From contig CANMOV010000003.1 in the NCBI GenBank assembly GCA_947499565.1, forward strand, positions 558,001 through 622,000: 64,000 bases of DNA, read 5' to 3'. The position numbers and the translations under genes were made by a program. Positions 12,692-47,277 of the stretch are shown here, piece by piece. A model generated the notes under the pieces. The model saw nothing but the letters and a program-made list of their open reading frames with translations, did not search any database and was not told where the DNA came from. The stretch is from an uncultured Croceitalea sp. Its GTDB lineage: Bacteria; Bacteroidota; Bacteroidia; Flavobacteriales; Flavobacteriaceae. Positions within the stretch are counted from its first letter, which is position 1, and every line of letters starts with the position of its first letter.

Positions 12692-12713
12692 AATACGCTA
12701 TTAATCATGCTAT

Positions 12714-13122: not shown

Positions 13123-14274
13123 TTATGCTGCTTTTGTATGCAAAAGCCTGGTTAGTTTAATAGATAAATCGGTGAAAATAATTTTAGCATTTCCGTTACG
13201 TTCCACGTGAAAAATGGCCTCTTCTAATTCCTTTGTTATGTCCAGAATGTTATTCTCATGCACAAAAGGTGCAAACTTTTTTAGGTCAAATCCGTCCATA
13301 TGGATTTTGGCATAAACCAGTTCATTAGCATTAAAATTCATTAACATAGCCTGGCGCATCATTGTAATGCAATAGTGTAAAAACTTCTTTTGAACTTCGC
13401 GGCCATTTTTAGCAAGCTCATTGCTCCAATTTATAAGATCATGGATAGCTGTTTTATTGCCTTTTGCTTTAAATGCACTGCGAACCCATTGCACAAACCA
13501 TTTTTCGAAAACCAAGTCTTCCGAATCGTTGTTCATTAGGTCTAAAGCCTTATTAAAGTTCCCATTAGCTTCATGAGCCAAACGGTTTGCTTCTGCTTCT
13601 CCAAGACCTTTATCCATTAGACCTTTCGCTATAACAGTTGTAGGTAGTGGCGCAAAGTGCAACACTTGGCAACGTGACTTAATGGTAGTAATAATTTGCT
13701 CTTCGTCTTCTGTGATAAAAAGAATAATGGTGTTTTTTGGCGGCTCTTCAATTAGTTTTAAAAGCTTGTTGGAAGCGGCAATATTCATTTTTTCGGCCAT
13801 CCATACAATCAAAATTTTGTAGCCCCCTTCGTAGGATTTTAAAGAAAGTTTTTTAACAATATCCTGGGCTTCATCAACCCCAATTTGGCCTTGCTTTTTC
13901 TCGATACCAATTGCGCGGTACCAATCGAACAAATTCCCATAAGGCTGTGCTTTTACAAACTGCCGCCATTCTTGCAAATAATTATTGCTAACGGCATGAC
14001 TTTTTACTTTGTCTGAATTAGAAACCGGAAAAGCAAAATGCAAATCTGGATGCATTAAAGAAGCACATTTGGTATTGCAAACTTCATTTTCATCCTCGTT
14101 TTCTCCATTGGTGTTTTGGCAAAGCACATATTGCGCATAGGCAATAGCTAAAGCTAATGTTCCCGAACCTTCTGCACCAACAAACAATTGTGCATGAGGA
14201 ATACGCCCAGCCTCTGCAGTGGCGGTTAAATGTTTTTTTAAATGGTTAAGGCCCAGAACTTCTTTAAACTGCAT
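13123..14274 (-). CDS. holB: DNA polymerase III delta' subunit
   Basis: A 383-residue clamp-loader ATPase-like subunit. The N-terminus (RIPHAQLFVGAEGSGTLALA) matches delta' proteins. The P-loop is degenerate, with Thr where the Walker A Lys should be, consistent with the non-hydrolysing delta' role. A Cys-rich zinc-module region (CQN...CNTKCASLMHPDLHF) lies near 53-80, and the conserved NKLLKLIEEPP motif (the SRC-adjacent helix) near 170, followed by TTIKSRCQVLHF. It is preceded 54 bases upstream by the last DUF6090 gene and followed by the DoxX gene. A degraded parS-like sequence lies inside the gene near its 3' end. Confidence 0.92.
   Translation of the reverse strand: MQFKEVLGLNHLKKHLTATAEAGRIPHAQLFVGAEGSGTLALAIAYAQYVLCQNTNGENEDENEVCNTKCASLMHPDLHFAFPVSNSDKVKSHAVSNNYLQEWRQFVKAQPYGNLFDWYRAIGIEKKQGQIGVDEAQDIVKKLSLKSYEGGYKILIVWMAEKMNIAASNKLLKLIEEPPKNTIILFITEDEEQIITTIKSRCQVLHFAPLPTTVIAKGLMDKGLGEAEANRLAHEANGNFNKALDLMNNDSEDLVFEKWFVQWVRSAFKAKGNKTAIHDLINWSNELAKNGREVQKKFLHYCITMMRQAMLMNFNANELVYAKIHMDGFDLKKFAPFVHENNILDITKELEEAIFHVERNGNAKIIFTDLSIKLTRLLHTKAA
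13199..13214. promoter_or_regulatory. Degraded parS-like site inside holB
   Basis: CGTTCCACGTGAAAAA matches the parS pattern TGTTCCACGTGAAACA at 14 of 16 positions, but it is not a perfect palindrome. It lies 3 kb from the second perfect site. It could be a weaker ParB site or chance within coding sequence. Confidence 0.3.
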
Positions 14275-14291
14275 AAAGCAAATATACGTTT

Positions 14292-14327
14292 TAGTGTAAC
14301 AGGATTTTAGCGAAGAATTTGATTACG
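14292..14327 (-). pseudogene. Possible degraded DUF6090 leader after the last array gene
   Basis: Just after the stop of the last array gene, the minus strand reads GTA ATC AAA TTC TTC and then about seven more codons to a stop (Val-Ile-Lys-Phe-Phe-Ala-Lys-Ile-Leu-Leu-His). This resembles the array leader MIKFFRKI with its start codon mutated. It is short, so chance similarity is possible, but it sits where a next leader would be. Confidence 0.35.
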
Positions 14328-14328
14328 G

Positions 14329-15129
14329 TTATTGTTTTTCCAGCTCTTTTTCCAGCATAGTTATGGTGGACAAAATAAAATCTTTTAGGTTCAATTCATT
14401 AATGACTACATAATCTTGATTATGCTTATGATGCCATACTTGGTTCTCTAATTCCATTAAATCTTCTTTTGGTAAATTAAATTTGAAAGGCGATTTCTCT
14501 TTGTAAGTAGTTAAGTAGTTGCTCTTGTCTAAGGGCAATTTTTTAGTGAGCTCACCATTGGCCAGGGGAAACCGCTCCATCAAAAACGGCATTAAATTCA
14601 TGCTGTAATTATCTGATCTAAAAAGAATATCCTCTTCGCAGTCAATAATTAAGGTAAGCCAATTACCCAATTGTTCCCGGATTGCCCTGTTTTTTAGAAT
14701 GCTTAATTTTCCTGAATTCACTATTTCACTAGAAACCCCAGTTAAAGCATCAAAAGAGTAAAAATTGCCTATGGCAATTAGTAAGGCATCAACCTGTTCC
14801 GATTTTTGGGTTAAAGAATCAGTGCGTATGATTTGGGTAAGCTCTAAACAAGATTTAGTAGCTTTTGCATTTATATTGATAGATTCTTCCAAGTATTTCA
14901 GATTATTTTGAAACTCGTCCTTTAGCGCAGTAAGTAGTTCTACTTCTGTTCGATCTTCAATCCGCTGTTGGTTCCAGGTGTTTATTTGGAGTGCCAAAAG
15001 AATCCCAATGACCACAAGTAAAATTTCACCGATGGCGTATTTAAAGTACCTGCCTGCCGGCGAGGCAGGTTTACCCATTTGGTTTTGGTTGATTAATGAA
15101 CGACGTATGTGTCTGAAGAATTTAATCAC
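14329..15129 (-). CDS. DUF6090 family membrane protein (array position 14, last)
   Basis: A 266-residue member: cytoplasmic basic leader, one transmembrane helix (about 32-50), then a helical extracytoplasmic body with VNSGKLSILKNRAIREQL. The start is GTG, overlapping the stop of the upstream paralogue by 8 bases (GTGATTAA). Its leader belongs to the RHIRRSLIN subtype shared with the gene at 18138-18926, but it carries seven extra residues (PASPAGR) between MGK and YFKY, encoded by a 21-bp palindromic insertion. It is the promoter-distal end of the array, 54 bases before holB. Function unknown. Confidence 0.87.
   Translation of the reverse strand: MIKFFRHIRRSLINQNQMGKPASPAGRYFKYAIGEILLVVIGILLALQINTWNQQRIEDRTEVELLTALKDEFQNNLKYLEESININAKATKSCLELTQIIRTDSLTQKSEQVDALLIAIGNFYSFDALTGVSSEIVNSGKLSILKNRAIREQLGNWLTLIIDCEEDILFRSDNYSMNLMPFLMERFPLANGELTKKLPLDKSNYLTTYKEKSPFKFNLPKEDLMELENQVWHHKHNQDYVVINELNLKDFILSTITMLEKELEKQ
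15049..15069. repeat. 21-bp palindromic insertion unit, copy 2, in frame in a DUF6090 leader
   Basis: This near-palindrome with 7-bp arms and core CTGCCGGC adds exactly seven codons (Pro-Ala-Ser-Pro-Ala-Gly-Arg) to the leader, compared with the closest paralogue leader at 18138-18926. It aligns without gaps over 21 bp with the units at 12598, 24006 and (inverted) 30267. Confidence 0.75.
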
Positions 15130-15838
15130 TTAAATGATTTTTAGATAGTTTATTAATTTCAGATAGTTTTTGTAGTGCAGCTTCTAAATAGGGTTCTGAG
15201 CTGGATTTATTCGTTTTAAAAAATTTAAAAAAACTTAAATTAGCAGGATTCTCAAAAAACGATTTAGAATCACGAGGCGAAGCATAGGTTTTCCATTCGA
15301 ACTCTGAAAAATCTTCTTTCATTATAGGAATCCAATCATCTTTAAAAGATTCTTCAACGTCCTTATGAGCAGCATAAACATTAAGCACATGTTCATCATA
15401 ATAGGTGATTAGTGCTAATTGTAACTCATCATTAGAAATAATATCTATACCCTTTGATTTTAGCATCTCAAATGCACTTGATTGGGATTTAAATCGTTCA
15501 AAAGAAATAATCTCTCCTAACCAATAGTTTAAACTATCATTGTAGTTTCCTAAGCTAACCTGCTCTAATAATTTATCTGTTAAATCCTTAGATGATTTTA
15601 AGCTGTATAATTGGTTAGATAATGCAATAGAATCGTTTTCTAAATTTTGATTGATTAAGGTTAAAATCTTACGTTCATAGTTTTGGTTTTTCCGTTTCTC
15701 ATTCCAATTATTAATCTGAAGTGCAATGAGGATACCAATGACTACGAGGATAATTTCGCCAATGGCGTATTTGAGGTATTTGCCTGTTTTACCTTCTGAA
15801 AGCAGGTTTTCTCGAATTTTTCTAAAGAATTTAATCAC
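15122..15838 (-). CDS. DUF6090 family membrane protein (array position 13)
   Basis: A 238-residue member with the standard leader (MIKFFRKIRENLLSEGKTGKYLKYAIGEI), one membrane helix and a helical body. The shared motif appears as MLKSKGIDIISNDELQLALITYYDEH near residue 120. The start codon is GTG. It overlaps both neighbours by 8 bases through GTGATTAA, so its C-terminal Ser-Asp is encoded by the start of the next gene. Function unknown; probably an inner-membrane protein with its C-terminus outside the cytoplasm. Confidence 0.87.
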   Translation of the reverse strand: MIKFFRKIRENLLSEGKTGKYLKYAIGEIILVVIGILIALQINNWNEKRKNQNYERKILTLINQNLENDSIALSNQLYSLKSSKDLTDKLLEQVSLGNYNDSLNYWLGEIISFERFKSQSSAFEMLKSKGIDIISNDELQLALITYYDEHVLNVYAAHKDVEESFKDDWIPIMKEDFSEFEWKTYASPRDSKSFFENPANLSFFKFFKTNKSSSEPYLEAALQKLSEINKLSKNHLSD

Positions 15839-16553
15839 TCGTTTTTTCTCTTAGAAGGGTTAATATTTTATTTGCTTCTATTCTAATCTCTTCAAGGGCT
15901 TCAGAGATTAGGCCACAATTCAAAAAAAAGTAGTTGGCCACCCTATTTTTGTAGTCCATGTTTTCAATGGAATAATTTACAAAACCACTTGATTCTTTGC
16001 CTATTAAGTAGTCTGGATACCAAATAAAATTTTCTTTCCAATAATCATAGTTGCTTTTTAAATCGTCTAATGCAAGTTCATTAAGAGCTTCTAAGCGGGT
16101 ATTATATTTTTCATAAAAATCATTAATTTTTATTTGTACCTCATTAGAAGAGAAATCACTACCGTTAAAATTGCGGAGCTGCTCGTAGCCTTTTGTTTTT
16201 AGGCTAAAATCTTCGCTCCCACCAATTAAATTGTAATATCTATTATTAGAACTGTAATCGTTACGGCTTAAGTTTCCTCTTATAATATGTTTTAGTAAAG
16301 GGGCCTTATTGTTATTGTATTTTAAAATTTCTGGGATATTTTTTAAATCTGATTCTAAGTCACTAATAAGTAAATTGTATATGGCATTTAAAGATTCTTT
16401 TTCTTTTCTTTCTTCGTTCCAGTTATTAATCTGTAGCGCAATGAGAATCCCAATGACCACTAGTACAATTTCGCCAATGGCGTATTTAAAGTACTTGGTG
16501 GTTTTACCTTCTGAAAGGAGGTTTTGCCGAATTTTTCTAAAGAACTTTATCAT
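15831..16553 (-). CDS. DUF6090 family membrane protein (array position 12)
   Basis: A 240-residue paralogue with leader MIKFFRKIRQNLLSEGKTTKYFKYAIGEI, a single membrane helix, and a body in which the shared motif is degenerate (YEQLRNFNGSDFSSNEVQIKINDFYEKY). Its ATG immediately follows the stop of the upstream paralogue (TAAATG), and it overlaps the next gene by 8 bases, ending in Thr-Ser-Asp. The TTKYFKY leader subtype is also seen in the chimeric gene at 23208-24086 and in the gene at 19755-20501, which suggests that leaders exchange independently of bodies. Confidence 0.87.
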   Translation of the reverse strand: MIKFFRKIRQNLLSEGKTTKYFKYAIGEIVLVVIGILIALQINNWNEERKEKESLNAIYNLLISDLESDLKNIPEILKYNNNKAPLLKHIIRGNLSRNDYSSNNRYYNLIGGSEDFSLKTKGYEQLRNFNGSDFSSNEVQIKINDFYEKYNTRLEALNELALDDLKSNYDYWKENFIWYPDYLIGKESSGFVNYSIENMDYKNRVANYFFLNCGLISEALEEIRIEANKILTLLREKTSD

Positions 16554-17321
16554 TTACTTTAACTTATCTATTTCTTGTTCTAATAACTTTATAGTTTTGC
16601 TATTAAACTTTTGATAATCGGTGTTTCTACTTAATAAAGAGCTAAGTAAGAACATTTTATTATCGATCATATTCTCAAATTTTCTGTCTTTTAAAATAAT
16701 TCGATTATCACTGTAATCCAGTTTGCTTTTACCAATTCTATCTTTAATAGGTGCAAAACTGTAATCTACTTGTCTTAGCGAAATATTGTCGTAGAGATAA
16801 GGTACAAAGTTGTCTGAGCCATCTAAATCTTCATTTTTCTCATTCCTTTGAATGCCTGCATAAATACTTGGAATTTGATATAAGAAATCTCGAAGACTAT
16901 CTGAGGCTATCAAAGAAATTGCACCAGAACTTAATGCCTCATCAAGCGTAGAAGATTTATATTTTAAACTAGGGGACGTTAAAAGAGAATAAATTAAGGT
17001 ATCGATTGTTTTTTCATTTTTATCAGTAAAGTCATTACCCATAAATTGAAGTAGCCTTTCAGAATCTGCCATCAATGATTCGATTCTTTTAATATTCTCA
17101 GATAGCGCTTCCTTATTTTTTTTACTTTCAACTAGCAATCTTGCCATTAGATTTGCTGAAGCTTTACTCTCAACACGTTGTTGATTCCAATTATTAATCT
17201 GTAGTGCAATAAGAATACCAATTACTACAAGGACAATTTCACCAAGGGCATATTTAAAATACTTGCCTGTTTTGTTTTCCATGAATAGGTTTTGACGGAT
17301 TTTTCGGAAGAATTTAATCAT
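16554..17321 (-). CDS. DUF6090 family membrane protein (array position 11)
   Basis: A 255-residue paralogue with leader MIKFFRKIRQNLFMENKTGKYFKYALGEI, one membrane helix and a helical body. The shared motif reads LDEALSSGAISLIASDSLRDFLYQIP. After the helix the sequence is INNWNQQRVESKA rather than INNWNENRK, a variant shared with the array-terminal gene. Twelve bases separate it from the upstream paralogue and none from the downstream one. No enzymatic motif is visible. Confidence 0.87.
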   Translation of the reverse strand: MIKFFRKIRQNLFMENKTGKYFKYALGEIVLVVIGILIALQINNWNQQRVESKASANLMARLLVESKKNKEALSENIKRIESLMADSERLLQFMGNDFTDKNEKTIDTLIYSLLTSPSLKYKSSTLDEALSSGAISLIASDSLRDFLYQIPSIYAGIQRNEKNEDLDGSDNFVPYLYDNISLRQVDYSFAPIKDRIGKSKLDYSDNRIILKDRKFENMIDNKMFLLSSLLSRNTDYQKFNSKTIKLLEQEIDKLK

Positions 17322-17333
17322 TTATAGTTGTTG

Positions 17334-18134
17334 TTATTTTTCGAGAAAAGGATAATTATCAACTAGCAATTTGTTTAAGTTATAAATGTCCTCCTCTATA
17401 TCTTTATACATACTAGCATGAAAATTAGAAATAGATTTTTTGTGATTAATGAGATTATATAACACCAATGAATTTTCTGGAATATTAATTGATCTAGAAA
17501 TAAGTTCAATTATTTTATCTGGAACGTTATTAAATGTATCGCTTATTCCAGAGTCGAAATTTGCAAATTGCTCGGAGTCATCTCCAGTAACACTAATTAA
17601 ATTTATACTTTTAGACATAGCAGTATCGTCATTTTGCAAATTATTACTGGCAATAATTTGAGCAGATAATCTTAGCTCGTCATAATACTTTAGTAAACTA
17701 TCTTTTACGGCACTTTTTTGAATAATATCTAAATCACCAGAAGATTTAACCTCGTCTAATGCTGTATCTATAATATTAAAAGTAAACCGATCGTTAATAG
17801 CTGAGATGTTAGCAAGATTCTCAGTACTTACCACAAAACCGTTATTTTGATAAAATGATTTTTGAGCAGCTAATAGATTTTCGTAACTATTTAATTCGCC
17901 TTTAGTGGCACGATCTAAAATGACTATCTGTGCCTTTAAATCTCTTTGAATATTAGTAATGTAGACTTTTTCCTTTTGTCTGTCTTTTCTATTTTCATTC
18001 CAATTGTTAATCTGCAACGCAATAAGAATCCCAATTACTACAAGTATAATTTCACCAATGGCGTATTTAAAGTATTTGCCTGTTTTGTTTTTCTCCATAA
18101 GATCTTTTCTAATATATCTAAAGAATTTAATCAT
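17334..18134 (-). CDS. DUF6090 family membrane protein (array position 10)
   Basis: A 266-residue paralogue. The leader is MIKFFRYIRKDLMEKNKTGKYFKYAIGEI; the membrane helix is followed by a helical, acidic body with the motif LDEVKSSGDLDIIQKSAVKDSLLKYYDEL. It starts with ATG three bases after the upstream stop. The body shares little with its neighbours outside the motif, consistent with an old duplication. Confidence 0.87.
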   Translation of the reverse strand: MIKFFRYIRKDLMEKNKTGKYFKYAIGEIILVVIGILIALQINNWNENRKDRQKEKVYITNIQRDLKAQIVILDRATKGELNSYENLLAAQKSFYQNNGFVVSTENLANISAINDRFTFNIIDTALDEVKSSGDLDIIQKSAVKDSLLKYYDELRLSAQIIASNNLQNDDTAMSKSINLISVTGDDSEQFANFDSGISDTFNNVPDKIIELISRSINIPENSLVLYNLINHKKSISNFHASMYKDIEEDIYNLNKLLVDNYPFLEK

Positions 18135-18137
18135 TGG

Positions 18138-18926
18138 TTAGTCTTTAATTTCTTGATTTAATAGGTCTAATATTTCCGAAATGCGCTTGTGTAAGACTTG
18201 AGATTGTAAGTTCGCTGCATAATTAACCGAAACCGCAGATGAAACTATACCCTCTAACTTCTTTGTCTTTAAAATTTCACCTGCTATTATAGTGTTATCT
18301 GTTTTTGGTTTTTTAAATGGATTTGTAAAAGAACCATCCATTACCCATTTAATGTTTTGCTCGTCATTCCACCATTTATAAAAGCCGTTTCGGAGGATGC
18401 CCATATCATTGAATAATGGAATAACAGATTCCCACATTTTATTATTCCAAATATTTTCTATCTCTTTTATATGCATAACACTAGATGGCCAAGTAGTTAG
18501 TAACTGATTTAATTTTTTATTCTTAATTAAAAGGATATCTCCAGAATTAATAAGATTATTTTGAATAGGTTTAAATGTAGGGTTCCCAATCAATACATTT
18601 AATTGGTTGTAGAGGCTATCAGTATTAACATTTAATGGTTTATCTATATAATCTAAGAGTTTATTACCAGCCTTAATTATCTTTTTGCGATGGGCAATCT
18701 TTTGTTCTAATTGTAGGAGATTACTTTTGTATTCTTCGGTGAGTTGTTTTAATATTTGTTGTTCTTTATCATTATCCTTTCTATTTTCATTCCACGTATT
18801 GACCTGTAAAGCTAAGAGAATACCAAGCATTACCAGAAAAATTTCGCCAATTGCGTATTTAAAGTATTTTCCCATTTTATTATCATTTATTAATGATCTT
18901 CTAATATGTCTGAAGAATTTAATCAT
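18138..18926 (-). CDS. DUF6090 family membrane protein (array position 9)
   Basis: A 262-residue paralogue. The leader (MIKFFRHIRRSLINDNKMGKYFKYAIGEI) is of the same subtype as the array-terminal gene but without the seven inserted residues, making it the natural empty-site comparison. The body motif reads NLINSGDILLIKNKKLNQLLTTWP. It is overlapped by 8 bases at its start (ATGATTAA) by the upstream gene, which thereby ends in Ser-Asn-Asp. Confidence 0.87.
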   Translation of the reverse strand: MIKFFRHIRRSLINDNKMGKYFKYAIGEIFLVMLGILLALQVNTWNENRKDNDKEQQILKQLTEEYKSNLLQLEQKIAHRKKIIKAGNKLLDYIDKPLNVNTDSLYNQLNVLIGNPTFKPIQNNLINSGDILLIKNKKLNQLLTTWPSSVMHIKEIENIWNNKMWESVIPLFNDMGILRNGFYKWWNDEQNIKWVMDGSFTNPFKKPKTDNTIIAGEILKTKKLEGIVSSAVSVNYAANLQSQVLHKRISEILDLLNQEIKD

Positions 18927-19653
18927 TGCTATTGGGTTTTGATAGCTTAATAATATTATCTATGGTTTCTTGTACTTTTTGCAATTCTCCACTAGAGAAT
19001 AATATCTGATTCATAAGATCATATTGACTTTTTACATGGTATTCAAACTGTAATGACTGAAGTGCCTCAAAGTTATTTCTGTCGTCATTAAAATTAAAAC
19101 TCCAATCAAAGTGCTTTGACAAATATGGATCATACTGATTGTATAAATAGTTTCTTGAGTACAGTTCTTCCTCCTGATAGTCTTTAATTAAATCGTTCCA
19201 TGATACCAAGTAATCTCGCAAGGATTCATTTTTAATAATATCAAAAGATGAAGTGCTGGCAAGTGCATTAATGCTAGTCTGAGAAGGATTAAATGTAACA
19301 CCACCATACGACCAAAATAAATGATAAGCCAAAGAATCTAAAACAGTTTGTTTAGGTTTAGATGTGATTGGAAAAAGTTCGATAATTTTTGCACAATTGG
19401 CATGTACATTTTGATGCTGATTTACGACTGAATCTAGCTGTTTTTTATTTTGTTTAAACTCTTTATGAATATTTGCTAATATGGCAGTTTCCTTATTAGC
19501 ATTTATTCTGTTTTCATTCCAATTATTAATTTGAAGTGCAATTAAAATCCCAATAACCACTAGCAGTATTTCACCAATTGCGTATTTAAAGTATTTACCC
19601 ATTTTGTTTTCGCTCATGAGTTTGTATCTAATTCGTCTAAAAAACTTTATCAT
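18919..19653 (-). CDS. DUF6090 family membrane protein (array position 8)
   Basis: A 244-residue paralogue with leader MIKFFRRIRYKLMSENKMGKYFKYAIGEI. Its body is clearly closest to that of the next gene upstream (19755-20501): both contain NALASTSS/NALSSSSS, then a [SW]-rich segment with LIKDYQEEE/VLKDYQEEE, and end in a similar ETI[DN]xII helix. This suggests a recent duplication. A truncated leader lies between the two genes. It overlaps the downstream gene by 8 bases. Confidence 0.87.
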   Translation of the reverse strand: MIKFFRRIRYKLMSENKMGKYFKYAIGEILLVVIGILIALQINNWNENRINANKETAILANIHKEFKQNKKQLDSVVNQHQNVHANCAKIIELFPITSKPKQTVLDSLAYHLFWSYGGVTFNPSQTSINALASTSSFDIIKNESLRDYLVSWNDLIKDYQEEELYSRNYLYNQYDPYLSKHFDWSFNFNDDRNNFEALQSLQFEYHVKSQYDLMNQILFSSGELQKVQETIDNIIKLSKPNSND

Positions 19654-19654
19654 A

Positions 19655-19762
19655 TTAATAGTTTCTGTTTTTTCCGTAAGCGGCTATCTTCATCAAAGGT
19701 CTTCTAGACCTTAGGTTTTGCTTTTGCAAAATTTTGTTTCGATAATGGAAAAATTTAATCAT
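19655..19762 (-). pseudogene. Truncated DUF6090 leader (35 codons)
   Basis: After the stop of the gene at 19755-20501 the minus strand starts again with ATGATTAAATTTTTCC (Met-Ile-Lys-Phe-Phe-His) and runs 35 codons (MIKFFHYRNKILQKQNLRSR) to a TAA just before the next gene. The 8-base ATGATTAA overlap with the upstream stop is exactly the junction used between intact array genes. The membrane helix and body are missing, so this is a leftover start of a lost or never-completed gene. It also contains a short hairpin (AAGGTCT...AGACCTT). Confidence 0.7.
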
Positions 19763-20501
19763 CAATTTCGGTTTCAGTTAGTTCAATAATTTGGTTAATT
19801 GTTTCAAGGACTAAATCTAACTCACCCGTTTCACTACCTAAAATTTCTTTAAGATCAAAATGTCTATCACGCACATAATTTTCAAACTCCAAAGTTTCTA
19901 GAAAACTAAGATCTATTCGTGGGTCATTAAAAGAGTTTTTATAATTATTCCAACCAAAAGCCATGTGTTTCTTTTCATAAGGTTTTAAGTGGTTTTTGTA
20001 ATTAGATACAGCTAATATTTCTTCTTCTTGATAATCTTTAAGGACATCACTCCAACTTATTAGTGTTTTACGCAAATCATTATTAGAAATAAGATCATAT
20101 GACGAACTACTTGACAATGCATTTGTAATACCTTCTGAAGGATTAAATGTGTAATACCAACGCATATAATGGCTATGTAAACCTAAAGAGTCAAAATCAA
20201 TTGTTTTTATATCAATTGGAAATTTTGATATTATGTATTCTGCAGATTTTACCGCCCTATTGTGATAATATTGTGCCGAATCAAATTGAATTTTGTTTAA
20301 TTTAAATTCAGTATTCAATTCCTTTAGAAGCAATTTTTCTTTGTTTTTTGCATTTCGGTTTTCATTCCAGTTATTAATCTGAAGGGCAATAAGAATACCA
20401 ATTACTACAAGTATAATTTCACCAATAGCGTATTTAAAGTACTTGGTGGTTTTACCTTCTGTAAGCAGGTTTTGACGGATTTTTCTAAAAAATTTTATCA
20501 T
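19755..20501 (-). CDS. DUF6090 family membrane protein (array position 7)
   Basis: A 248-residue paralogue starting at the ATG whose last base is 20501 (MIKFFRKIRQNLLTEGKTTKYFKY). The frame is open 36 codons further upstream to 20609, but that extension is translated from the MITE-like repeat and should not be annotated as protein. The body is close to that of the next gene downstream. It is separated from the DUF885-like gene by the MITE-like repeat, so it may depend on read-through or on a promoter in that gap. Confidence 0.87.
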   Translation of the reverse strand: MIKFFRKIRQNLLTEGKTTKYFKYAIGEIILVVIGILIALQINNWNENRNAKNKEKLLLKELNTEFKLNKIQFDSAQYYHNRAVKSAEYIISKFPIDIKTIDFDSLGLHSHYMRWYYTFNPSEGITNALSSSSSYDLISNNDLRKTLISWSDVLKDYQEEEILAVSNYKNHLKPYEKKHMAFGWNNYKNSFNDPRIDLSFLETLEFENYVRDRHFDLKEILGSETGELDLVLETINQIIELTETEIDD

Positions 20502-20516
20502 AGTTTTTAGCGTGTT

Positions 20517-20619
20517 GTCACTTCGAGTGATTTTCGATAGAAAATTGTATCGAGAGGTTAGTATTAACAACCGCAAATAGTTCTCGATACATTTTGCAAT
20601 GCAAAACACTCGAACTGAT
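20517..20619. repeat. MITE-like interspersed repeat, copy 2 (uninterrupted, 103 bp)
   Basis: The reverse complement of the repeat at 12568-12691, without the 21-bp unit. Ends are inverted (GTCACTTCGAGTGATTTT at one side, complement of ATCAGTTCGAGTGTTTT at the other). It lies between the DUF885-like gene and a DUF6090 gene, which interrupts the otherwise tight array. Confidence 0.75.
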
Positions 20620-20648
20620 ATGGTGGATATGGTGAAAGAATTTTAGCA

Positions 20649-22319
20649 TTAGTTAAGTGATTTCAATTGCTTATTTTCTCCTGTCATTTCCCAATGCCCT
20701 AAAGCTATAGGGATATTTCCAATACTGTTAAGCGTATCAAAAAAGGCTTTGGTTTTAAATGGTTCGCCATTTTCTTCTTGCAATTTGGCATAATCTGCCA
20801 TGGCATTTTCGAGCAAATATTTACCTGTGATGTAGCTTGTACCATAACCTGGTTGGCGCAAATACAAATGTTGCTCAAAAATTAGGAGTTCTTTTTCGGT
20901 TTTCATCCAACCACGAGGGGTGTATTCGCTATGTATTCCGCCAGCCTCTTCCATAGTCATTTCATTGGCATGGGCATATAGAGAACCTAAGCCACGCGCA
21001 GCGCGTTGGGCAATCATTATGTACACTATTTCTTTTGTTCTTGGACTATCATCATACAAGCCAGCTTGCATGAACATTTCCTCTACCGCTGTTGCGGTAC
21101 CTTCATTACGAGAATCGAAAATATTATAAAGCAACGGCCCACGTCTAATCTCACTTTTATGGGGTTCGTTGTCCATCCGCGCCAACTCAAACCAATGGTA
21201 AAAATGCGAGTACAATGGCCTTGGGTCATAATGCTCGCCAATTATAAAGAAGTTGCGCTTTTCTTTGGGTACAAATTCTCCCAAATGTTCACGAAGGGCA
21301 ACATCAAAATAAGGTTTTACAGTAACTATTTCTTGTTGACCCAGAAAGTTGATTAAGCTTTTCGCAGCTTCATCAGCCATGTTATCATACGCTTCCTGAG
21401 AATCGGCATCTACCAATTCTGGCAAGCCTCTATTTCTATGTTCTTCTAGCTTAAGCGCGGTCCAAGCACGGGCTAATTCTCGCTTTAATAACATTACCTC
21501 ATCATCCCAAGTTAAGGGAACTAAATGTACGTTTTGCAAATACCAGGTATAGTTGTCTTTACCAATCCCTGAAGGGCCAGTTTTGTTTTTAGATTCATTC
21601 TGCAACCAGTTTACTAAATCGTCCGTTGCGGTAATCGCTGTGTCAATGGCCGCAATAAGTTCCGCATCATCATTAACACCGGGCTTTTCTTTTAGCGTGG
21701 CTAAAACTGTGCTCTGATTTTGGACGTCTCTTATACCGGTTATCCACAAATCTTTGGCATTGCCAGTTAGATTTTTCTTAGCCTGTGCAGTAAAAGGTGG
21801 AATAACATTTAACTCTTTTACGAATTGCGTTCGCGCTGCTGCTGATAGTGGAAATTCATAGGTCCACAACTCTAAAGTGCTATGATTTGTAGGACCTTCA
21901 TGGGCTGGGACGTCACTTTTGTAAGACCATACTGTTTTGTAAAATGCAGGATCACGAACCCAAGGTTTTAAGATGTTATGGTTAAAATCGTAACCATTCA
22001 TTTCTGCCCAAACTAACATCCAATCTACTTGGCTTGGTATTGCCCAATTGGTAGTATCAATGGCATGTAGTTGCGCTCTTAGATTTTTAAAGGTGGGCCA
22101 ACGTTTCTCAAAAGTAGCTTTGGTATAGTCCGGAGCGTTATCTAAAAGTGGAGGTTTTTCAAAAGCGCGCCAATCATGGAACAGGGAGACAAGGGACTTA
22201 TAATCGGCTGAAGTTGTTACTTGTAGCTCCGTGTCTGCAGTATCTTCTTTAGTTGCCTCTTTGCAACCGAATATGACTAATAGGCTTAGTAAAAGTATTT
22301 TGGCTAGTTGTGTTTTCAT
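20649..22319 (-). CDS. DUF885-like lipoprotein inserted in the DUF6090 array
   Basis: A 556-residue protein with a lipoprotein signal peptide ([19 protein letters not shown], Cys19). The mature part resembles DUF885 proteins, which are related to metallopeptidase folds. It has a late [11 protein letters not shown] segment comparable to the family's EGWALYAE motif and [14 protein letters not shown] comparable to their conserved C-terminal motif. I cannot find the HExxH zinc motif; the corresponding region carries YSHFYHWFE. It is therefore either divergent or not catalytic. It sits between array genes with a truncated DUF6090 leader directly upstream and a MITE-like repeat directly downstream, and looks like an insertion into the array. 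Confidence 0.6.
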
Positions 22320-22332
22320 AATAGTTAAGTTT

Positions 22333-22425
22333 TTAATGTTTATGACCCACTTCTACAGACTCAGAACAACGCCTCCTATGAGGGGAATATAACTTAGCGG
22401 ATTTTTCTCGGAAGAGTTTAATCAT
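22333..22425 (-). pseudogene. Truncated DUF6090 leader (30 codons) before the DUF885-like gene
   Basis: The stop codon of the gene at 22422-23201 overlaps a new ATG (ATGA), which begins Met-Ile-Lys-Leu-Phe-Arg-Glu-Lys and runs 30 codons to a stop 13 bases before the DUF885-like ATG. The MIKLFR start is the array leader, as in the gene at 25535-26284. The rest is unrelated and lacks a membrane helix. It marks the point where a paralogue was replaced or truncated when the DUF885-like gene arrived. Confidence 0.65.
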
Positions 22426-23201
22426 TGATTCGTACACTTTTGGTTTAGTAGTCTTAACATATTGTCTACTTCACTTTCAATTAAGTTTAATAATTCTAAA
22501 CGCCGTCTATTGTTTAAACCAATACTAAGCGCAGTACCGTATAGTCTGGGTTTGATATCCTTGGGTATAAATTGAGGTAGGTCTTCTTTAAGTTGCTGTC
22601 TAATGTCTTCTGTAAATATTTTATTCTTATAAAATTCGTCATTGGCATTAAATAAGCCTAATGAGATGAAATTTTCAAAGTTAGAAAGTCGGTCAAAATC
22701 AAGTTCAAAATTTGTGATAATAGCTTTTGTATAGCCATCTGTTGTTTTAAAATATGTGTTTAGAGCTTTTACTATTTTTTTGTCTTTTATGATACTAAGA
22801 TTTCCACTTGATTTTATGTCTTCATATGTGGCATCATTGGGTTGAAATGAATTTGCTGCCAAACGTATCGCATACCTTAAATTTTCACCAAATTTAGTAG
22901 CGTCTGATTGGTCTTGTTGAATCACAGAAATCATTTGATTTGAGTAACTGATACGCTCTTTTACTAAGGTTTTAAGTACGTCTACTTGTTGTTTGTCTTG
23001 CTTTAGGTCATCTAGCAATAAACAATAATAGCTTTTCTCTAAAGTGTTGGCCTTTCTGTTTTCATTCCAATTATTAATCTGTAGCGCAATAAGAATCCCA
23101 ATAACCACAAGGATAATTTCACCAATGGCGTATTTAAAATATTTACCTGTTTTACCTTCTGAAAGCATGTTTTGGCGGATTTTTCTAAAAAACTTGATCA
23201 T
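22422..23201 (-). CDS. DUF6090 family membrane protein (array position 6)
   Basis: A 259-residue paralogue with leader MIKFFRKIRQNMLSEGKTGKYFKYAIGEI and membrane helix. The body motif reads YEDIKSSGNLSIIKDKKIVKALNTYF. It lies 6 bases downstream of the chimeric gene, and its TGA overlaps the ATG of a truncated leader. It is the last complete array gene before the DUF885-like intruder. Confidence 0.87.
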   Translation of the reverse strand: MIKFFRKIRQNMLSEGKTGKYFKYAIGEIILVVIGILIALQINNWNENRKANTLEKSYYCLLLDDLKQDKQQVDVLKTLVKERISYSNQMISVIQQDQSDATKFGENLRYAIRLAANSFQPNDATYEDIKSSGNLSIIKDKKIVKALNTYFKTTDGYTKAIITNFELDFDRLSNFENFISLGLFNANDEFYKNKIFTEDIRQQLKEDLPQFIPKDIKPRLYGTALSIGLNNRRRLELLNLIESEVDNMLRLLNQKCTNQ

Positions 23202-23207
23202 TTAGTG

Positions 23208-24086
23208 CTATATATTTGAATCGAATAGGATTTGCCAACCTTCACCGGTTTTTTGCCAGATGAGTATGTATTTTCCATTGTACGACCCTTTACATTGCCC
23301 TATTTCGTAGACAATATTTTTTGAAACGGGTTCAATTATAATTGGATGCAGTGCTAACTTATAATCTGCATTATTCATGTACGCATAGTTAGTAATTAGA
23401 TCTTCTCTGCCTATAACAATAGGCCTATGGTTATAATACATGGTGTTTTGGCTGTAGAGATTGTTAATTAGATTGGTTGCGTTGTGCGAATTACAAAGCT
23501 TTATCCATTTATCTCTTTGGGCATGTATCGGTTTTAAATCTAGAGAAAAGTCATCGGCCTCAGCTAGAAACTCTAGGACACGTTTTTCTGTTTCGTGAGA
23601 GGTGTCCCAAATAACAGCATACTTCATCAATCCATTAGTTGCATTTTTGAAGCTCCCAATTTCGTAATCATATTTCCTATTGGCTTTTATGCGTTGTATC
23701 GTATTAACATCTTTTACTACAAAGTTGTTATTCGCGACGATGCTAATAAGCGTATCGCGATTAGTAAAATCGATACCATTTGGGGAGAGCCCGTAAACAT
23801 CATTTACATATAACGCTTTTAAGACCTCTAAATCTTTGGTGTTAATAGCATTCATCCATCTTTTGTTAGGAGACAAATTATCTTGTGAAACATGATTAGT
23901 GTCTGACATAACTTTACTAGCCTTACTTTTTTTATTTGATGTATTACAGCTTAAAAAGATGCACATGATCATAAGAAAAAGGTGGCCAACAGCGTATTTA
24001 AAGTACCTACCTGCCGGCAAGGCAGGTTTGGTTGTGTTACTTTCTGAAAGCAAGTTTTGGCGAATTTTATGAAAGAATTTTAGCAT
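23208..24086 (-). CDS. Chimera: DUF6090 leader fused to an NTF2-like (SnoaL/DUF4440-type) protein
   Basis: A 292-residue protein. Residues 1-45 are a DUF6090 leader (MLKFFHKIRQNLLSE..YFKYAVGHLFLMIM), including the membrane helix and a seven-residue PALPAGR insertion encoded by the 21-bp palindromic unit. From Cys47 onward the sequence is unrelated to DUF6090. It contains what look like two NTF2-like units, one around RWMNAINTKDLEVLKALY and one around RDKWIKLCNSHNATNLINNLYSQ ending in WQKTGEGWQILFDSN. FLSC before Cys47 looks like a lipobox, but the 46-residue n-region would be unusual. The body may have been a lipoprotein that acquired the leader. Substrate or partner unknown. Confidence 0.75.
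   Translation of the reverse strand: MLKFFHKIRQNLLSESNTTKPALPAGRYFKYAVGHLFLMIMCIFLSCNTSNKKSKASKVMSDTNHVSQDNLSPNKRWMNAINTKDLEVLKALYVNDVYGLSPNGIDFTNRDTLISIVANNNFVVKDVNTIQRIKANRKYDYEIGSFKNATNGLMKYAVIWDTSHETEKRVLEFLAEADDFSLDLKPIHAQRDKWIKLCNSHNATNLINNLYSQNTMYYNHRPIVIGREDLITNYAYMNNADYKLALHPIIIEPVSKNIVYEIGQCKGSYNGKYILIWQKTGEGWQILFDSNI
24006..24026. repeat. 21-bp palindromic insertion unit, copy 3, in frame in the chimeric gene
   Basis: It encodes Pro-Ala-Leu-Pro-Ala-Gly-Arg between TTK and YFKY of the leader, at exactly the same leader position as the unit at 15049-15069. It aligns over 21 bp with the other three copies, with the core CTGCCGGC conserved. Confidence 0.75.
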
Positions 24087-24094
24087 AAGTATCT

Positions 24095-24808
24095 TTAAAG
24101 TTCTTTTAACTGAATTTCAATTGTTCTTTGCAATTCATCATTCCTGGCTATTGCGGAGCCTAAAAGATTAAGCTCAAATAGTTTTACGTTTCGTTGGTAT
24201 TTAATCAATTTAATAAGTACTGTATTATCTAGTTCATTTCTTATCGTTGTCTCATCTACCATCATAGCTATATTATAGTCAACATTACTGTTTAGTATAT
24301 AGGGAATTACATTATCATTTGTAAAGGTTTCACCATATTCCGAACATACACGAAGCCGTTCATATGTTTGTTCATAATAGCTAGTAATATCAGCTTTTAA
24401 TTCATGATTAGCCATGGAAGCAAATAGTCCACTATTTTTTAAACCTGAATAAGAATTATTGCTTTTGTAGAAGTAGAAATAATTATCTAAAATCATAAAA
24501 ACAGAATCTAAACCAATAGTCCCATATTCTTTTTTGGCAAGTTTTGTTAGATAACTGAATCTTTTAGTGTCACCTTTTTGAAATCCAGTTAATTGAACTT
24601 TATCCTGTTTCAGGTCATTCAGAATTTGTGCAAGGGCTATTTTTAATTCACCTTGTTGATTTTTATCCTCATTCCAATTGTTAATCTGAAGTGCGAGCAG
24701 AATCCCAATAACAACTAGTAAAATTTCACCAATAGCGTATTTAAAGTATTTACCTGTTTTGTTTTCTGAAAGCAGGTTTTGGCGGATTTTTCGGAAGAAT
24801 TTAATCAT
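24095..24808 (-). CDS. DUF6090 family membrane protein (array position 4)
   Basis: A 237-residue paralogue with leader MIKFFRKIRQNLLSENKTGKYFKYAIGEI. The motif reads YSGLKNSGLFASMANHELKADITSYYEQTY. It overlaps the upstream gene by 8 bases (ATGATTAA) and lies 8 bases before the chimeric gene. It ends in a short amphipathic helix (TIEIQLKEL). No catalytic motif is visible. Confidence 0.87.
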   Translation of the reverse strand: MIKFFRKIRQNLLSENKTGKYFKYAIGEILLVVIGILLALQINNWNEDKNQQGELKIALAQILNDLKQDKVQLTGFQKGDTKRFSYLTKLAKKEYGTIGLDSVFMILDNYFYFYKSNNSYSGLKNSGLFASMANHELKADITSYYEQTYERLRVCSEYGETFTNDNVIPYILNSNVDYNIAMMVDETTIRNELDNTVLIKLIKYQRNVKLFELNLLGSAIARNDELQRTIEIQLKEL

Positions 24809-25538
24809 TAGCTTGGTGTAATAGTTTTAAAACCAATTCGGTTTGTTGCAATACATCGTCTGTTAACTCTATATACCTTGAAATGGTGTAATGTTCTTGT
24901 CCAAAATAATTCAATAAATCTCTTGGTAAATCATTTACTTTTACATCTTTCCATAAGAGTTGGTGTGTTTTATTTTTACTAAAAGGACTTCCAAATTGAG
25001 GATATTTACTTCCAAGTTTTAGCATAAAGTTAAAAAGGTAAGCTTTATTACCATTTTGTACAGTTTTCTCAAAAGTTTGAAGTCGATTTAGTTCCATAAG
25101 TTCTTTTCTTAGGTCTTTATCTAACAAATCAATTTTTCCACTAGATATGAGTAAATTAAAACTGTTGGTATTGTAAACATTGGTAACTCTCATTCCAATT
25201 AATTCGTTATTTAAGAGTCTAAAATAACTTTCAAGATTATTATAATGACCATTTGTAAGACTGTCACCTATTGAGTTAATCCGATCAATTCTAAGGTTAT
25301 TTCTTAAAAGCCTATCGTTAACTTGTATGGTGTCTTTTGTGTAATCATTAATCAAGGCTGTTTTGTATTCGCTTTTTAGAGTTTCTTTTTTTCTATTCTC
25401 ATTCCAGTTATTAACTTGTAGTGCTAATAGAATACCAATCATGACAAGTGCTATTTCGCCTATGGCGTATTTAAAATATTTACCTGTTTTGCCCTCTGAA
25501 AGCAGGTTTTGGCGAATTTTTCTAAAGAATTTAATCAT
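24801..25538 (-). CDS. DUF6090 family membrane protein (array position 3)
   Basis: A 245-residue paralogue with leader MIKFFRKIRQNLLSEGKTGKYFKYAIGEI and a slightly different helix (ALVMIGILLALQVNNWNE). The motif reads FNLLISSGKIDLLDKDLRKELMELNR. It ends in Ala-Asn-Asp, the last codons lying within the ATGATTAA start of the next gene, and overlaps the upstream paralogue by 4 bases (ATGA). Confidence 0.87.
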   Translation of the reverse strand: MIKFFRKIRQNLLSEGKTGKYFKYAIGEIALVMIGILLALQVNNWNENRKKETLKSEYKTALINDYTKDTIQVNDRLLRNNLRIDRINSIGDSLTNGHYNNLESYFRLLNNELIGMRVTNVYNTNSFNLLISSGKIDLLDKDLRKELMELNRLQTFEKTVQNGNKAYLFNFMLKLGSKYPQFGSPFSKNKTHQLLWKDVKVNDLPRDLLNYFGQEHYTISRYIELTDDVLQQTELVLKLLHQAND

Positions 25539-26284
25539 CTTAATTTTGGCTCAGTTTCTATTTTAGCTATGATATCTTTAATAGTTGCTTTTTTTTCCGT
25601 TAACTCGTTGTTTAATGTGCCTGTGACTTGAAGCATAATAAATAAAGTTGAAATTACCTTTTCGTCTGAATGTATTATTATTTCTGAAGCAGGTTTTAGA
25701 TCCAAATCCAACCCAATAAAAGATTGTATTAATTCTTTTGAAATAACTTTAGGAATAATATCATCAGTAAATTCTCTCGTAATTTGCTGTACTCGTTTTT
25801 GGGTACCATCTCTATAACTAAAATCACTATAATAATTAGATAGTTCCGCTCGCAATATCTTATTACTTATCAATCCTATTTTTTCTGAAGACACCATATT
25901 GTCGAACCCAGTTCTTACAGGTTCGAAAATTACATGGTCTGTTAAAATCGCCATTTTTGGACTAAAGCTTTTAAAGTAAGGAGAGCCCATTTTGGCCTTC
26001 TCAAACAAAGCCAAACTATTTACTATCGAATCTATTTTTTTTGAACTAAAATGGAGTGTCTTATTAATATTTAGAGTATCCCTAACCAAATTTTCTTTTA
26101 TTTCAGAAAGATAATCGCGTTCTAGGTTTTTCTTTTGTCGATTTTCATTCCAGTTATTAATTTGTAGCGCTATAAGAATACCAATAACTACAAGAATAAT
26201 TTCTCCTATAGCATAGAGCAAGTACTGTGAGAATTTGTTCTGAGATAGTAGGTTTTGGCGAATTTTTCTAAAGAGTTTAATCAT
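25535..26284 (-). CDS. DUF6090 family membrane protein (array position 2)
   Basis: A 249-residue paralogue with an atypical leader, MIKLFRKIRQNLLSQNKFSQYLLYAIGEI. YLLYAIGE replaces YFKYAIGE, so this leader has diverged more than the rest. The body motif reads FDNMVSSEKIGLISNKILRAELSNYY. Its TGA overlaps the next ATG. It follows the first array gene after 7 bases. Confidence 0.87.
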   Translation of the reverse strand: MIKLFRKIRQNLLSQNKFSQYLLYAIGEIILVVIGILIALQINNWNENRQKKNLERDYLSEIKENLVRDTLNINKTLHFSSKKIDSIVNSLALFEKAKMGSPYFKSFSPKMAILTDHVIFEPVRTGFDNMVSSEKIGLISNKILRAELSNYYSDFSYRDGTQKRVQQITREFTDDIIPKVISKELIQSFIGLDLDLKPASEIIIHSDEKVISTLFIMLQVTGTLNNELTEKKATIKDIIAKIETEPKLR

Positions 26285-26291
26285 AGGTGAA

Positions 26292-27041
26292 TTAGTTAAG
26301 ATAAGGTTGTAATAGTGGTAGTAGCTCTCTTATATTTTTTTGGTTTGTCTCTAATTCTGCTTGAGCGCCGGTATAAAGGACGCGATAGGAGGCTAACATT
26401 ACAGCCACTCTAGGAGTAAAATCCTTACTATCAATATTTGTCCAAGTATGATTATATAAATAACTGTTGCTATAGTTTTCATCATATAACCTACCAATGA
26501 TATTGTATTTTTTTACAAAATCATCTAAATGAATACGATATTGAGCAAGTGTCTTTTCATTGAAATCTTGACCCGATTGCATAACAGTATAATAGTTAGA
26601 CAAAGGGTTTTTTATAGTATCTGGTAAAATGTCGAAAACACCTGTAGATTTTAAGTTAGAAAATGTGTTTGTGTTATAAGCAGGTGAAGAATACCATCTT
26701 ACAGGAAACTCATTTTTCATTATGTTAATTAGGGTGTCTATGTTTGTGGTAGTGGCGTAAGATTTCTTAATTAAAGAATTCGTAGCAGTAAGTCTTGTAT
26801 TAACACCAGGCAGAGCTTTAGTAATAAGCAAACTGTCTATAACTAAGTCGTTATAAACAGATTGTAATGCGGTTTTTAATTTAATATTTTCTTTCCTTTT
26901 TTCATTCCAGTTGTTGATTGAGAGCGCAATTAGAATACCAATTACTACGAGGATGATTTCACCTATAGCATATTTAAAGTATTTGCCCATTTTACCTTCT
27001 GAAAGCAGGTTCTGGCGAATTTTTCTAAGGAATTTAATCAT
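26292..27041 (-). CDS. DUF6090 family membrane protein (array position 1, promoter-proximal)
   Basis: A 249-residue paralogue with leader MIKFLRKIRQNLLSEGKMGKYFKYAIGEI and ALSINNWNE after the helix. The body motif reads FSNLKSTGVFDILPDTIKNPLSNYY. It is the first gene of the array and the only one with a free upstream region. A Bacteroidota-type promoter with both elements lies about 36 bases upstream of its ATG. The gene is divergent from pgk. Confidence 0.87.
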   Translation of the reverse strand: MIKFLRKIRQNLLSEGKMGKYFKYAIGEIILVVIGILIALSINNWNEKRKENIKLKTALQSVYNDLVIDSLLITKALPGVNTRLTATNSLIKKSYATTTNIDTLINIMKNEFPVRWYSSPAYNTNTFSNLKSTGVFDILPDTIKNPLSNYYTVMQSGQDFNEKTLAQYRIHLDDFVKKYNIIGRLYDENYSNSYLYNHTWTNIDSKDFTPRVAVMLASYRVLYTGAQAELETNQKNIRELLPLLQPYLN

Positions 27042-27076
27042 TGGTTTTTGGTTGGTTGGTGGGGAAGTACTCGTAT

Positions 27077-27110
27077 CAAATATACGGGAACGTGTACTTC
27101 ATTTTAACAA
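27077..27110 (-). promoter_or_regulatory. Promoter of the DUF6090 array
   Basis: On the minus strand a -7 element TATATTTG (complement of 27077-27084) matches TAnnTTTG, and a TTG (complement of 27108-27110) lies 23 bases upstream, within the 17-23 spacing reported for Flavobacterium promoters. Transcription would start near 27070, giving a leader of about 30 bases. Confidence 0.5.
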
Positions 27111-27238
27111 AAGCCATTCAATTTCAGTGTTTTGGATTGTTAATAGCTAAAAAGTGAATTCAATTGAACGTATGTAAAAAACCACAAAAACAAGAAAATT
27201 TAGTGATTTGCTAACATCATAAAGCTTTTAGAAATCTT

Positions 27239-27246
27239 TACTTTTG
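27239..27246 (+). promoter_or_regulatory. -7 promoter element upstream of pgk
   Basis: TACTTTTG matches TAnnTTTG and ends 20 bases before the pgk ATG. The nearest upstream TTG is 28 bases away, outside the usual spacing, so only the -7 half is supported. Confidence 0.4.
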
Positions 27247-27266
27247 GCATTCAAACCGAGTAACTC

Positions 27267-40627: not shown

Positions 40628-40640
40628 ACTCTCACAAAAA

Positions 40641-42922: not shown

Positions 42923-42987
42923 TTCTTTAACCTTGTTTTATTTAGTATTGTCAAAAGAAACTTAGAAAATTTTTAAAAAAAAACTTT

Positions 42988-43521: not shown

Positions 43522-43532
43522 AAATTGTTTAA

Positions 43533-46220: not shown

Positions 46221-46234
46221 TTAAAACTAAATAG

Positions 46235-47269: not shown

Positions 47270-47277
47270 TGTACATA

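What the first reader, a model, noticed from the sequence alone, without database searches (positions are those of the whole stretch)
14329..27041. Thirteen-member DUF6090 array: constant membrane leader on divergent bodies
Seen: 13 complete paralogues and one chimera in 12.7 kb share a nearly constant first ~50 residues (basic MIKFFRKI helix, YFKYAIGE, one membrane helix, INNWNE), while the ~200-residue extracytoplasmic bodies differ strongly and keep only a Ser-Ser-Gly-x-Leu-x-Ile-Ile motif. Inference: repeated ~140-bp leaders are substrates for recombination, so the locus may work as a cassette bank that diversifies an exported or surface-facing domain (sensing, self/non-self or phage exclusion). 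No published role for this family is known to me.
Basis: partly seen in the sequence, partly recalled or inferred. Interest (0 to 1): 0.85.

Follow-up and report, generated by a model that had tools for sequence, protein, structure and literature searches.

The report
Gene cassettes swapped at shared leaders
A marine bacterium carries thirteen neighbouring genes that share one membrane-anchor start but have different outward-facing bodies, and comparison with relatives suggests that single bodies move between species and genera by crossing over in that shared start, so the cluster behaves like a renewable repertoire whose job is still unknown.

Summary
Thirteen intact DUF6090 (PF19578) genes and one leader-DUF4440 chimera lie head to tail at 14329-27041, between holB and pgk, in a Croceitalea genome; a DUF885 gene interrupts them. 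Leaders average 80% amino-acid identity, bodies 24%.

The recombination inference is largely supported. At this site the array is a late insertion: pgk and holB are neighbours in 78 of the 80 holB loci read, and the closest relative keeps only a scar of the array's two ends. Several single bodies are shared with other species and genera at dS 0.14-0.65 while holB/pgk are mostly saturated. Of 16 cross-genome body matches of at least 80%, 13 start at nt 0-144, in the leader; in 13 the far side is also visible and the island is about one gene long. Leaders with unrelated bodies are at least 95% alike in 10/1238 same-genome and 0/38678 different-genome pairs.

The silent-bank idea is not supported: all 13 genes are intact, spacing is operon-like, and body dN/dS is 0.08-0.48 (11 of 13 pairs computable).

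Function is undetermined. Best guess: a membrane-anchored analogue of homogeneous polyimmunity loci, renewed by leader-to-leader exchange.

The parts
27077..27110 (-). Bacteroidetes-type promoter-like motif (TTG ... TATATTTG) at the head of the array
   Evidence: Regex scan: 4 minus-strand matches in 14001-27600, the other 3 lie inside g09. The consensus form is recalled. The G006 scar has a similar stretch, not an exact match (sequence). The sigma-70 scan is not above chance.
26292..27041 (-). g14, DUF6090, first gene of the array
   Evidence: PF19578 31.8 bits
25535..26284 (-). g13, DUF6090, leader of the SQYLLYA type
   Evidence: PF19578 42 bits
24801..25538 (-). g12, DUF6090; body shared with G004 (87%) and another genus, G109 (86%)
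   Evidence: 42.9 bits; islands
24095..24808 (-). g11, DUF6090; body shared with G004 (91%), where g11 and g12 are in the opposite order
   Evidence: 57.5 bits
23208..24086 (-). g10, chimera: DUF6090 leader + lipobox (FLSC) + DUF4440 domain
   Evidence: PF14534 37 bits, no DUF6090 hit. In 8 genus genomes its matches all begin in the leader; the longest apart from itself, to g14, spans residues 1-189 at 34%
24006..24026 (-). 21-bp palindromic in-frame insert in the g10 leader (PALPAGR)
22422..23201 (-). g09, DUF6090
   Evidence: PF19578 46.1 bits
20649..22319 (-). DUF885 lipoprotein gene interrupting the array
   Evidence: PF05960 46.1 bits
19755..20501 (-). g08, DUF6090; body 92% identical to a gene of another genus (G654) under a different leader
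   Evidence: 29.4 bits
18919..19653 (-). g07, DUF6090; related bodies under different leaders in G002 and G005
   Evidence: 31.6 bits
18138..18926 (-). g06, DUF6090
   Evidence: PF19578 29.7 bits
17334..18134 (-). g05, DUF6090
   Evidence: PF19578 38.1 bits
16554..17321 (-). g04, DUF6090
   Evidence: PF19578 27.6 bits
15831..16553 (-). g03, DUF6090; body shared with G004 (96%) and G109 (88%)
   Evidence: PF19578 44.4 bits
15122..15838 (-). g02, DUF6090
   Evidence: PF19578 32.6 bits
14329..15129 (-). g01, DUF6090, last gene; its body end survives in the G006 scar
   Evidence: PF19578 40.8 bits
15049..15069 (-). 21-bp palindromic in-frame insert in the g01 leader (PASPAGR)
13123..14274 (-). holB (DNA polymerase III delta' subunit), downstream flank and site marker
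   Evidence: PF13177 146.5 bits
27267..28457 (+). pgk (phosphoglycerate kinase), divergent flank and site marker
   Evidence: PF00162 519.5 bits

Best explanation
This is an operon-like array of single-pass membrane proteins. Shown by comparison: the ~144-nt leader common to all genes is where similarity between genomes starts and leaders change; a unit of roughly one body, in two cases clearly together with the start of the next leader, is shared between genomes of different species and genera and sits under different leaders; leaders are also homogenised within a genome; one whole array has collapsed to its two ends. Inferred: incoming DNA pairs with any resident leader by ordinary homologous recombination, with no dedicated recombinase, and the leader anchors every body in the inner membrane with the body facing the periplasm (positive-inside rule, recalled). 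Inferred and less sure: the array serves as a standing repertoire of alternative recognition or protection domains, working like a homogeneous polyimmunity locus that covers many incoming toxins or other envelope attackers at once.
For: Cross-genome body matches of 80% or more over at least 350 nt: 16 pairs among 319 genes of 55 genomes; 5' edges at nt 0-144 in 13 of 16, 10 of 16 at nt 40-144. In 13 of 16 the far side is visible and the island is 531-1047 nt; in the other 3 a contig ends inside the gene. g08/G654: body 92%, edges at nt 133 of its own leader and nt ~937, about 88 nt into the next leader; first 63 nt only 42/63 identical. g03/G004: 95% island from nt 10 to 43-54 nt past the stop, inside the next leader; G004 then shows a leader start without a body. 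Body dS 0.14-0.32 for five within-genus array pairs and 0.29-0.65 for three cross-genus pairs, against flank genes that are saturated, 2.95, or 0.98 (pgk G004/G005). Leader homogenisation: 10/1238 same-genome against 0/38678 different-genome pairs at 95%; 0 of 500 label shuffles reach the mean or the count at 90%. Site: no DUF6090 between pgk and holB in 78 of 80 loci; scar in G006. Junctions: 57 of 134 overlap, 32 by 8 nt and 16 by 4 nt. Polyimmunity-like traits: same strand, tight spacing, variable gene number, no toxin family among the Pfam results shown for genes between DUF6090 genes.
Against: 3 of 16 islands begin 24-44 nt upstream of the gene, outside the leader; 3 of the 13 others begin at the start codon (nt 0-10), so the whole leader came along. 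The uniform breakpoint null is crude, since only leaders offer homology, and pairs are not independent. Within the genus alone the mean same-genome leader excess is small (0.713 against 0.695). Binomial support for a replaced leader start is weak for g11 and g12 against G004 (0.017, 0.03). Other body relatives are old or possibly vertical: g07/G002 dS 1.22, g14/G004 2.19, two of 13 pairs saturated, and 6 of 10 pairs have dS above 1 or saturated. For L077/L034 (G002/G006, dS 0.25) flank divergence was not computed. G004 and G005 are MAGs by record title, G002 is 54% complete, and contigs of all three break at the array. Some members elsewhere are broken (G001 L031:10624; internal stops in G076, G206, G343). 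No expression data. DUF885 and g10 break the homogeneity of the array.
Confidence: 0.6

Rival explanations
1. Neutral or selfish expansion: shared leaders merely make these genes prone to recombine, duplicate and spread, and the bodies have no repertoire role.
For: The array is dispensable: lost in G006 and not seen at this site in most relatives read. Copy number ranges from 1 to 17 within the genus. Leaders are homogenised within genomes.
Against: All 13 frames here are intact and body dN/dS is 0.08-0.48 in the 11 of 13 pairs where it could be computed, so bodies are kept under purifying selection.
Confidence: 0.2
2. Phage or mobile-element exclusion: membrane-anchored proteins block entry, each body specific to one phage type.
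For: Turnover and between-genus transfer fit an arms race. One of 110 members has a weak hit to SieB (E 0.016).
Against: No consistent PADLOC hit: one of 10 window proteins at 0.027, 9 families hit by 1-2 of 110 members each, best 0.00069. No match of g11 in phage or plasmid records; 43 viral-contig stretches fitted a pattern, none was confirmed. Neighbouring defence genes were not searched for systematically.
Confidence: 0.15
3. Envelope housekeeping or sensing: the invariant G35/A39 (GxxxA) in the membrane helix lets paralogues form mixed oligomers that sense or shape the envelope; diversity reflects niches.
For: R9, Y21, Y24, G27, E28, L31, G35, I36 and A39 are invariant in 110 members; the meaning of GxxxA is recalled.
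Against: Presence is patchy: 91 of 149 genomes of the family, one per genus, and 44 of 296 across the phylum; between-genus body exchange is unusual for a housekeeping complex.
Confidence: 0.2
4. Ordinary vertical paralogues: tandem duplication with strong selection on the anchor and fast divergence of bodies; apparent swaps are convergence or conserved nucleotides.
For: The leader is conserved at the protein level across the family, and pairs without a swapped leader exist (g03/G004, A in G004/G005, L077/L034).
Against: Body dS far below flank dS, sharp islands across genera, one leader insert type under different bodies in several genomes.
Confidence: 0.05

Closest known systems
Homogeneous polyimmunity loci (Zhang et al. 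2012, PMC3482391; section 39 read in full, otherwise passages)
   Same: Tandem, same-strand, tightly spaced, distantly related paralogues of one family; no toxin genes between them; gene number and type vary between relatives.
   Different: No known Imm domain; constant N-terminal membrane anchor; exchange at a repeated leader instead of a neighbouring recombinase; more than one cluster in several genomes read (for example G000, G031, G092); immunity untested.
T6SS immunity-gene arrays of Vibrio cholerae (Kirchberger et al. 2017, PMC5361080; passages seen)
   Same: Arrays built by horizontal gain and homologous recombination from other strains and species.
   Different: There, breakpoints varied greatly in position, also inside effector and immunity genes, and arrays sit in T6SS clusters behind effectors; here 13 of 16 5' edges lie in the leader, none in a body, and no effector was seen in the arrays read.
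[quoted passage not shown] passages of PMC3482391 and PMC5361080)
   Same: A constant 5' part works as the recombination arm for variable 3' cassettes.
   Different: Here each gene is complete with its own start, orphan tips are not the rule, and bodies show no toxin domain.
Pfam PF19578 (DUF6090)
   Same: All 13 genes are members above the curated cut-off.
   Different: Membership says nothing of function; no paper in the library names it.

Membership tests
PF19578 DUF6090 | Score above the curated Pfam cut-off (23.5 bits) | tested here: met
   13 of 13 genes, 27.6-57.5 bits; g10 does not match
Homogeneous polyimmunity locus | Tandem paralogues of one family, not interrupted by toxin genes | tested here: met
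   13 genes; the only interruptions are DUF885 and the chimera. Of 41 ORFs found between DUF6090 genes in the loci read, the other 40 were scanned (18, 22): no toxin family among those shown; 3 are stand-alone GIY-YIG. One search lists 25 of 51 families.
Homogeneous polyimmunity locus | Same orientation and small spacing, implying one message | tested here: met
   All on the minus strand, gaps mostly -8 to +12 nt, larger around g07/g08, DUF885 and g09; transcript itself not tested
Homogeneous polyimmunity locus | Gene number and type differ between relatives | tested here: met
   tested between species, not between strains
Homogeneous polyimmunity locus | Members are immunity proteins that neutralise toxins | not testable with these tools
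   No Imm family among Pfam hits of all 13 (one search shows 25 of 53 families) or NCBIfam hits of 8 of 13; needs an assay
Homogeneous polyimmunity locus | Recombinase next to the locus (in several cases only) | tested here: not met
   Flanks are pgk and holB, no recombinase between them. The authors report it in several cases only
Silent cassette bank (vls/pilS type, recalled) | Promoterless partial copies feeding one expressed gene | tested here: not met
   13 complete genes with their own starts
Known anti-phage system | Match to a PADLOC model | tested here: not met
   No consistent hit: 10 window proteins (9 of 13 DUF6090 and the chimera), 110 members with all 13

The most novel reading that the evidence does not exclude
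DUF6090 leaders are a recombinase-free cassette system of Flavobacteriaceae and wider Bacteroidota: a ~144-nt coding repeat serves at once as membrane anchor, homology arm for capture of foreign bodies, and punctuation (starts such as ATGATTAA close both other frames in 134 of 319 genes, so an upstream body that runs out of frame ends there), letting whole communities share a pool of outward-facing domains across genera.
Probability: 0.5. Interest if true: 0.85.

Novelty: new variant of a known kind. Interest (0 to 1): 0.72.

Why it matters
It points to a widespread gene family of unknown function whose bodies are traded between genera by way of a coding leader. If the repertoire has a defence role, it would be a large, uncharted pool of envelope-protection domains in marine Bacteroidota; even if not, it shows how a short protein-coding repeat can act as a natural cassette junction without an integrase.

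Tried and rejected
Structure prediction of g11 on a 110-row alignment: tool switched off, so no fold search was possible. Profile search against solved structures gave 13 hits, none better than E 0.12; the single-sequence search gave one at 0.57. PHROGs: phrog_35526 hits 3 of 110 members (best 7.6e-7), phrog_1152 hits 4, nine others 1 each; not followed. NCBIfam gave only hits far below cut-off. Phage, plasmid and viral-contig searches confirmed no relative. The first palindrome pattern was one base short and found nothing in the window; corrected, which finds three places in the genome, two of them the leaders of g01 and g10. Sigma-70 and terminator scans are at chance level. A partner-gene hypothesis was dropped: genes inside arrays are mixed. 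Nuclease-driven exchange (GIY-YIG in G002, G113 and G626 arrays; DUF559 beside the G004 array) was not tested. A competence gene (PF03772) is present in the genome, but it also rings in 10 of 14 controls, so it says little. Papers: DUF6090 and the leader string give no paper; one search gave none; some searches were seen as listings only, apart from the three papers cited. The first punctuation count (221 ORFs) held some genes twice because loci overlap; one search recounts distinct genes.
Full report
Observation. Thirteen complete DUF6090 genes lie on the minus strand between holB and pgk. A fourteenth gene, 23208-24086, has the leader fused to a lipobox and DUF4440. A DUF885 lipoprotein gene, 20649-22319, interrupts the row. 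Over 78 pairs of the 13, leaders average 0.80 and bodies 0.24 amino-acid identity. The strict SSGxLxII motif is in 2 of 13 bodies (by eye). In 110 aligned members the invariant residues are all in the leader: R9, Y21, Y24, G27, E28, L31, G35, I36, A39.

Distribution. The own genome has 17 matches; all 8 genomes of the genus held have between 1 and 17. In the family, 91 of 149 genomes, one per genus, have a match (numbers per genome are capped there at about 21). Across the phylum 44 of 296 genomes and 30 of 140 genera match; 0 of 14 control genomes do.

A late and fragile insertion. A holB scan kept the best 80 of 390 relatives. In 78 of the 80, pgk is in view next to holB, with 633 bp or less between them (negative values come from over-extended ORF starts), and no DUF6090 in between; the other 2, both Croceitalea (G004, G005), have DUF6090 genes beside holB and no pgk in view. 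In G002, G004 and G005 DUF6090 genes also lie on the pgk side, in G004 after some 5 kb of other genes. G001, G003 and G007 have nothing there. So among the loci read an array at this site is confined to some Croceitalea. G006, the nearest by holB (91%), keeps a 680-bp interval in which blastn finds the pgk side up to the first leader start, a scrap of leader, and the end of the g01 body running into holB: the expected remnant of a collapse between outer leaders.

Single bodies travel. Between G000 and G004, bodies of g03, g11 and g12 have dS 0.14, 0.32 and 0.26, whereas holB and pgk of the same pair are saturated. G002/G005 share a body at dS 0.26 with saturated pgk; G004/G005 share one at 0.23 with pgk at 0.98. 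The other 8 of the 13 pairs are less telling: 0.25 (L077/L034, flank not computed), 0.55, 0.70, 1.22, 1.23, 2.19 and two saturated. A DNA search of 397 family genomes found matches in 167, many of them leaders or DUF885; among them were g08 in G654 and g12 and g03 at two distant places in G109. Bodies there have dS 0.29, 0.42 and 0.65, while holB is 65% and 69% identical at the protein level with dS 2.95 or saturated. Of the 10 pairs, the other 6 cross-genus ones have dS 1.15-2.64 or are saturated. In G004 the order of g11 and g12 is reversed.

Edges. Leader-bearing genes from the loci listed in that script were compared (319 distinct genes, 55 genomes); every cross-genome body pair of at least 80% over at least 350 nt was examined, 16 in all. 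5' edges: nt 0-144 in 13, of which 10 at nt 40-144 and 3 at the start codon; the other 3 lie 24-44 nt upstream. After dropping 4 pairs (2 that were redundant, G004/G109, and 2 that looked like single loci, G002/G006 and G000/G002), 12 of 12 lie in the leader (the dropping was my choice and the uniform null is crude). In 3 of 16 pairs (those with G005 L091:7472 or G004 L098:1-711) a contig ends inside the gene, so the far side cannot be seen. In the other 13 the island is 531-1047 nt. The fitted 3' edge lies past the stop in 9 of 16 (one of these is the broken G001 gene). Two end demonstrably inside the next leader. For g08/G654 the edge is about 88 nt into it; that next leader is 54/63 identical to the g07 leader while the body behind it is only 24% identical to g07 over 111 residues, and the true g07 relative in G654 has a leader 42/63 identical. 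For g03/G004 the edge is 43-54 nt past the stop, after which G004 has no body.

Leaders are homogenised. Among gene pairs with unrelated bodies, the first 63 nt are at least 95% identical in 10 of 1238 same-genome pairs and 0 of 38678 different-genome pairs, at least 90% in 33 and 38; 0 of 500 label shuffles reach the observed mean or the 90% count (289 genes, 54 genomes; genes with other leader lengths and body-related pairs were left out). In the genus alone the excess is small in the mean (0.713 against 0.695) and at 92% it is 3 of 468 against 2 of 2672. In-frame inserts, many palindromic, lengthen the leader loop of 24 of 288 distinct genes under differing bodies.

Punctuation. Leader starts such as ATGATTAA stop both alternative frames within 12 nt in 134 of 319 distinct genes, against 35 of 337 other ATG ORFs of at least 150 aa in the same loci; at least one frame in 298 of 319 against 246 of 337. 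In the window it is both in 9 of 14 and one in 5 of 14. Of 134 junctions, 57 overlap, 32 by 8 nt and 16 by 4 nt. One Bacteroidetes-type promoter motif stands before g14.

Selection. Body dN/dS is 0.08-0.48 in the 11 of 13 pairs that could be computed. This argues against decay and against pervasive diversifying selection, though not against selection at a few sites.

Function. No family in Pfam, NCBIfam or PADLOC gives a function; no solved structure is near. The anatomy fits polyimmunity loci as described in PMC3482391 (section 39 read; passages) in spacing, orientation, variability and lack of toxins, but immunity was not tested, so I do not file it as one. In V. cholerae immunity arrays breakpoints varied greatly in place (PMC5361080, passages). 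A 2025 preprint on orphan immunity genes in gut bacteria says that the way such a cluster gains two homologous copies is not yet clear (PMC12247911, passages).

Noticed in passing
window 15049-15069 and 24006-24026: A 21-bp palindromic insert (CCTGCCTYGCCGGCAGGYAGG) sits in frame at the same leader site of g01 and g10; variants occur in leaders of other genera.
   Followed up: partly
window 12652-12693 (+) and 20515-20556 (-): A 42-bp repeat, 1-2 mismatches to the pattern, in two intergenic places, one of them just upstream of the g08 leader.
   Followed up: no
window 20649-22319; L224, L225, L227: The DUF885 gene lies next to DUF6090 genes also in G113, G595 and G089, but no DUF6090 was seen within the 1.5-kb flanks in 5 other genomes.
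   Followed up: partly
L033:8767-9081, L111:4957-5376, L246:9679-10002, L087:3857-4264: Stand-alone GIY-YIG nuclease genes lie inside arrays of three genera, and a DUF559 gene lies beside the G004 array.
   Followed up: no
L087, after the g03 relative: G004 has a leader start of about 50 nt with no body behind it.
   Followed up: no
L031:10624-11407: A G001 array member looks broken: a 178-aa ORF with the leader followed by a 92-aa ORF.
   Followed up: no
window 39584-56535: A polysaccharide synthesis cluster (sugar-nucleotide genes, flippase-like and polymerase-like genes, glycosyltransferases), judged from ORF translations only.
   Followed up: no
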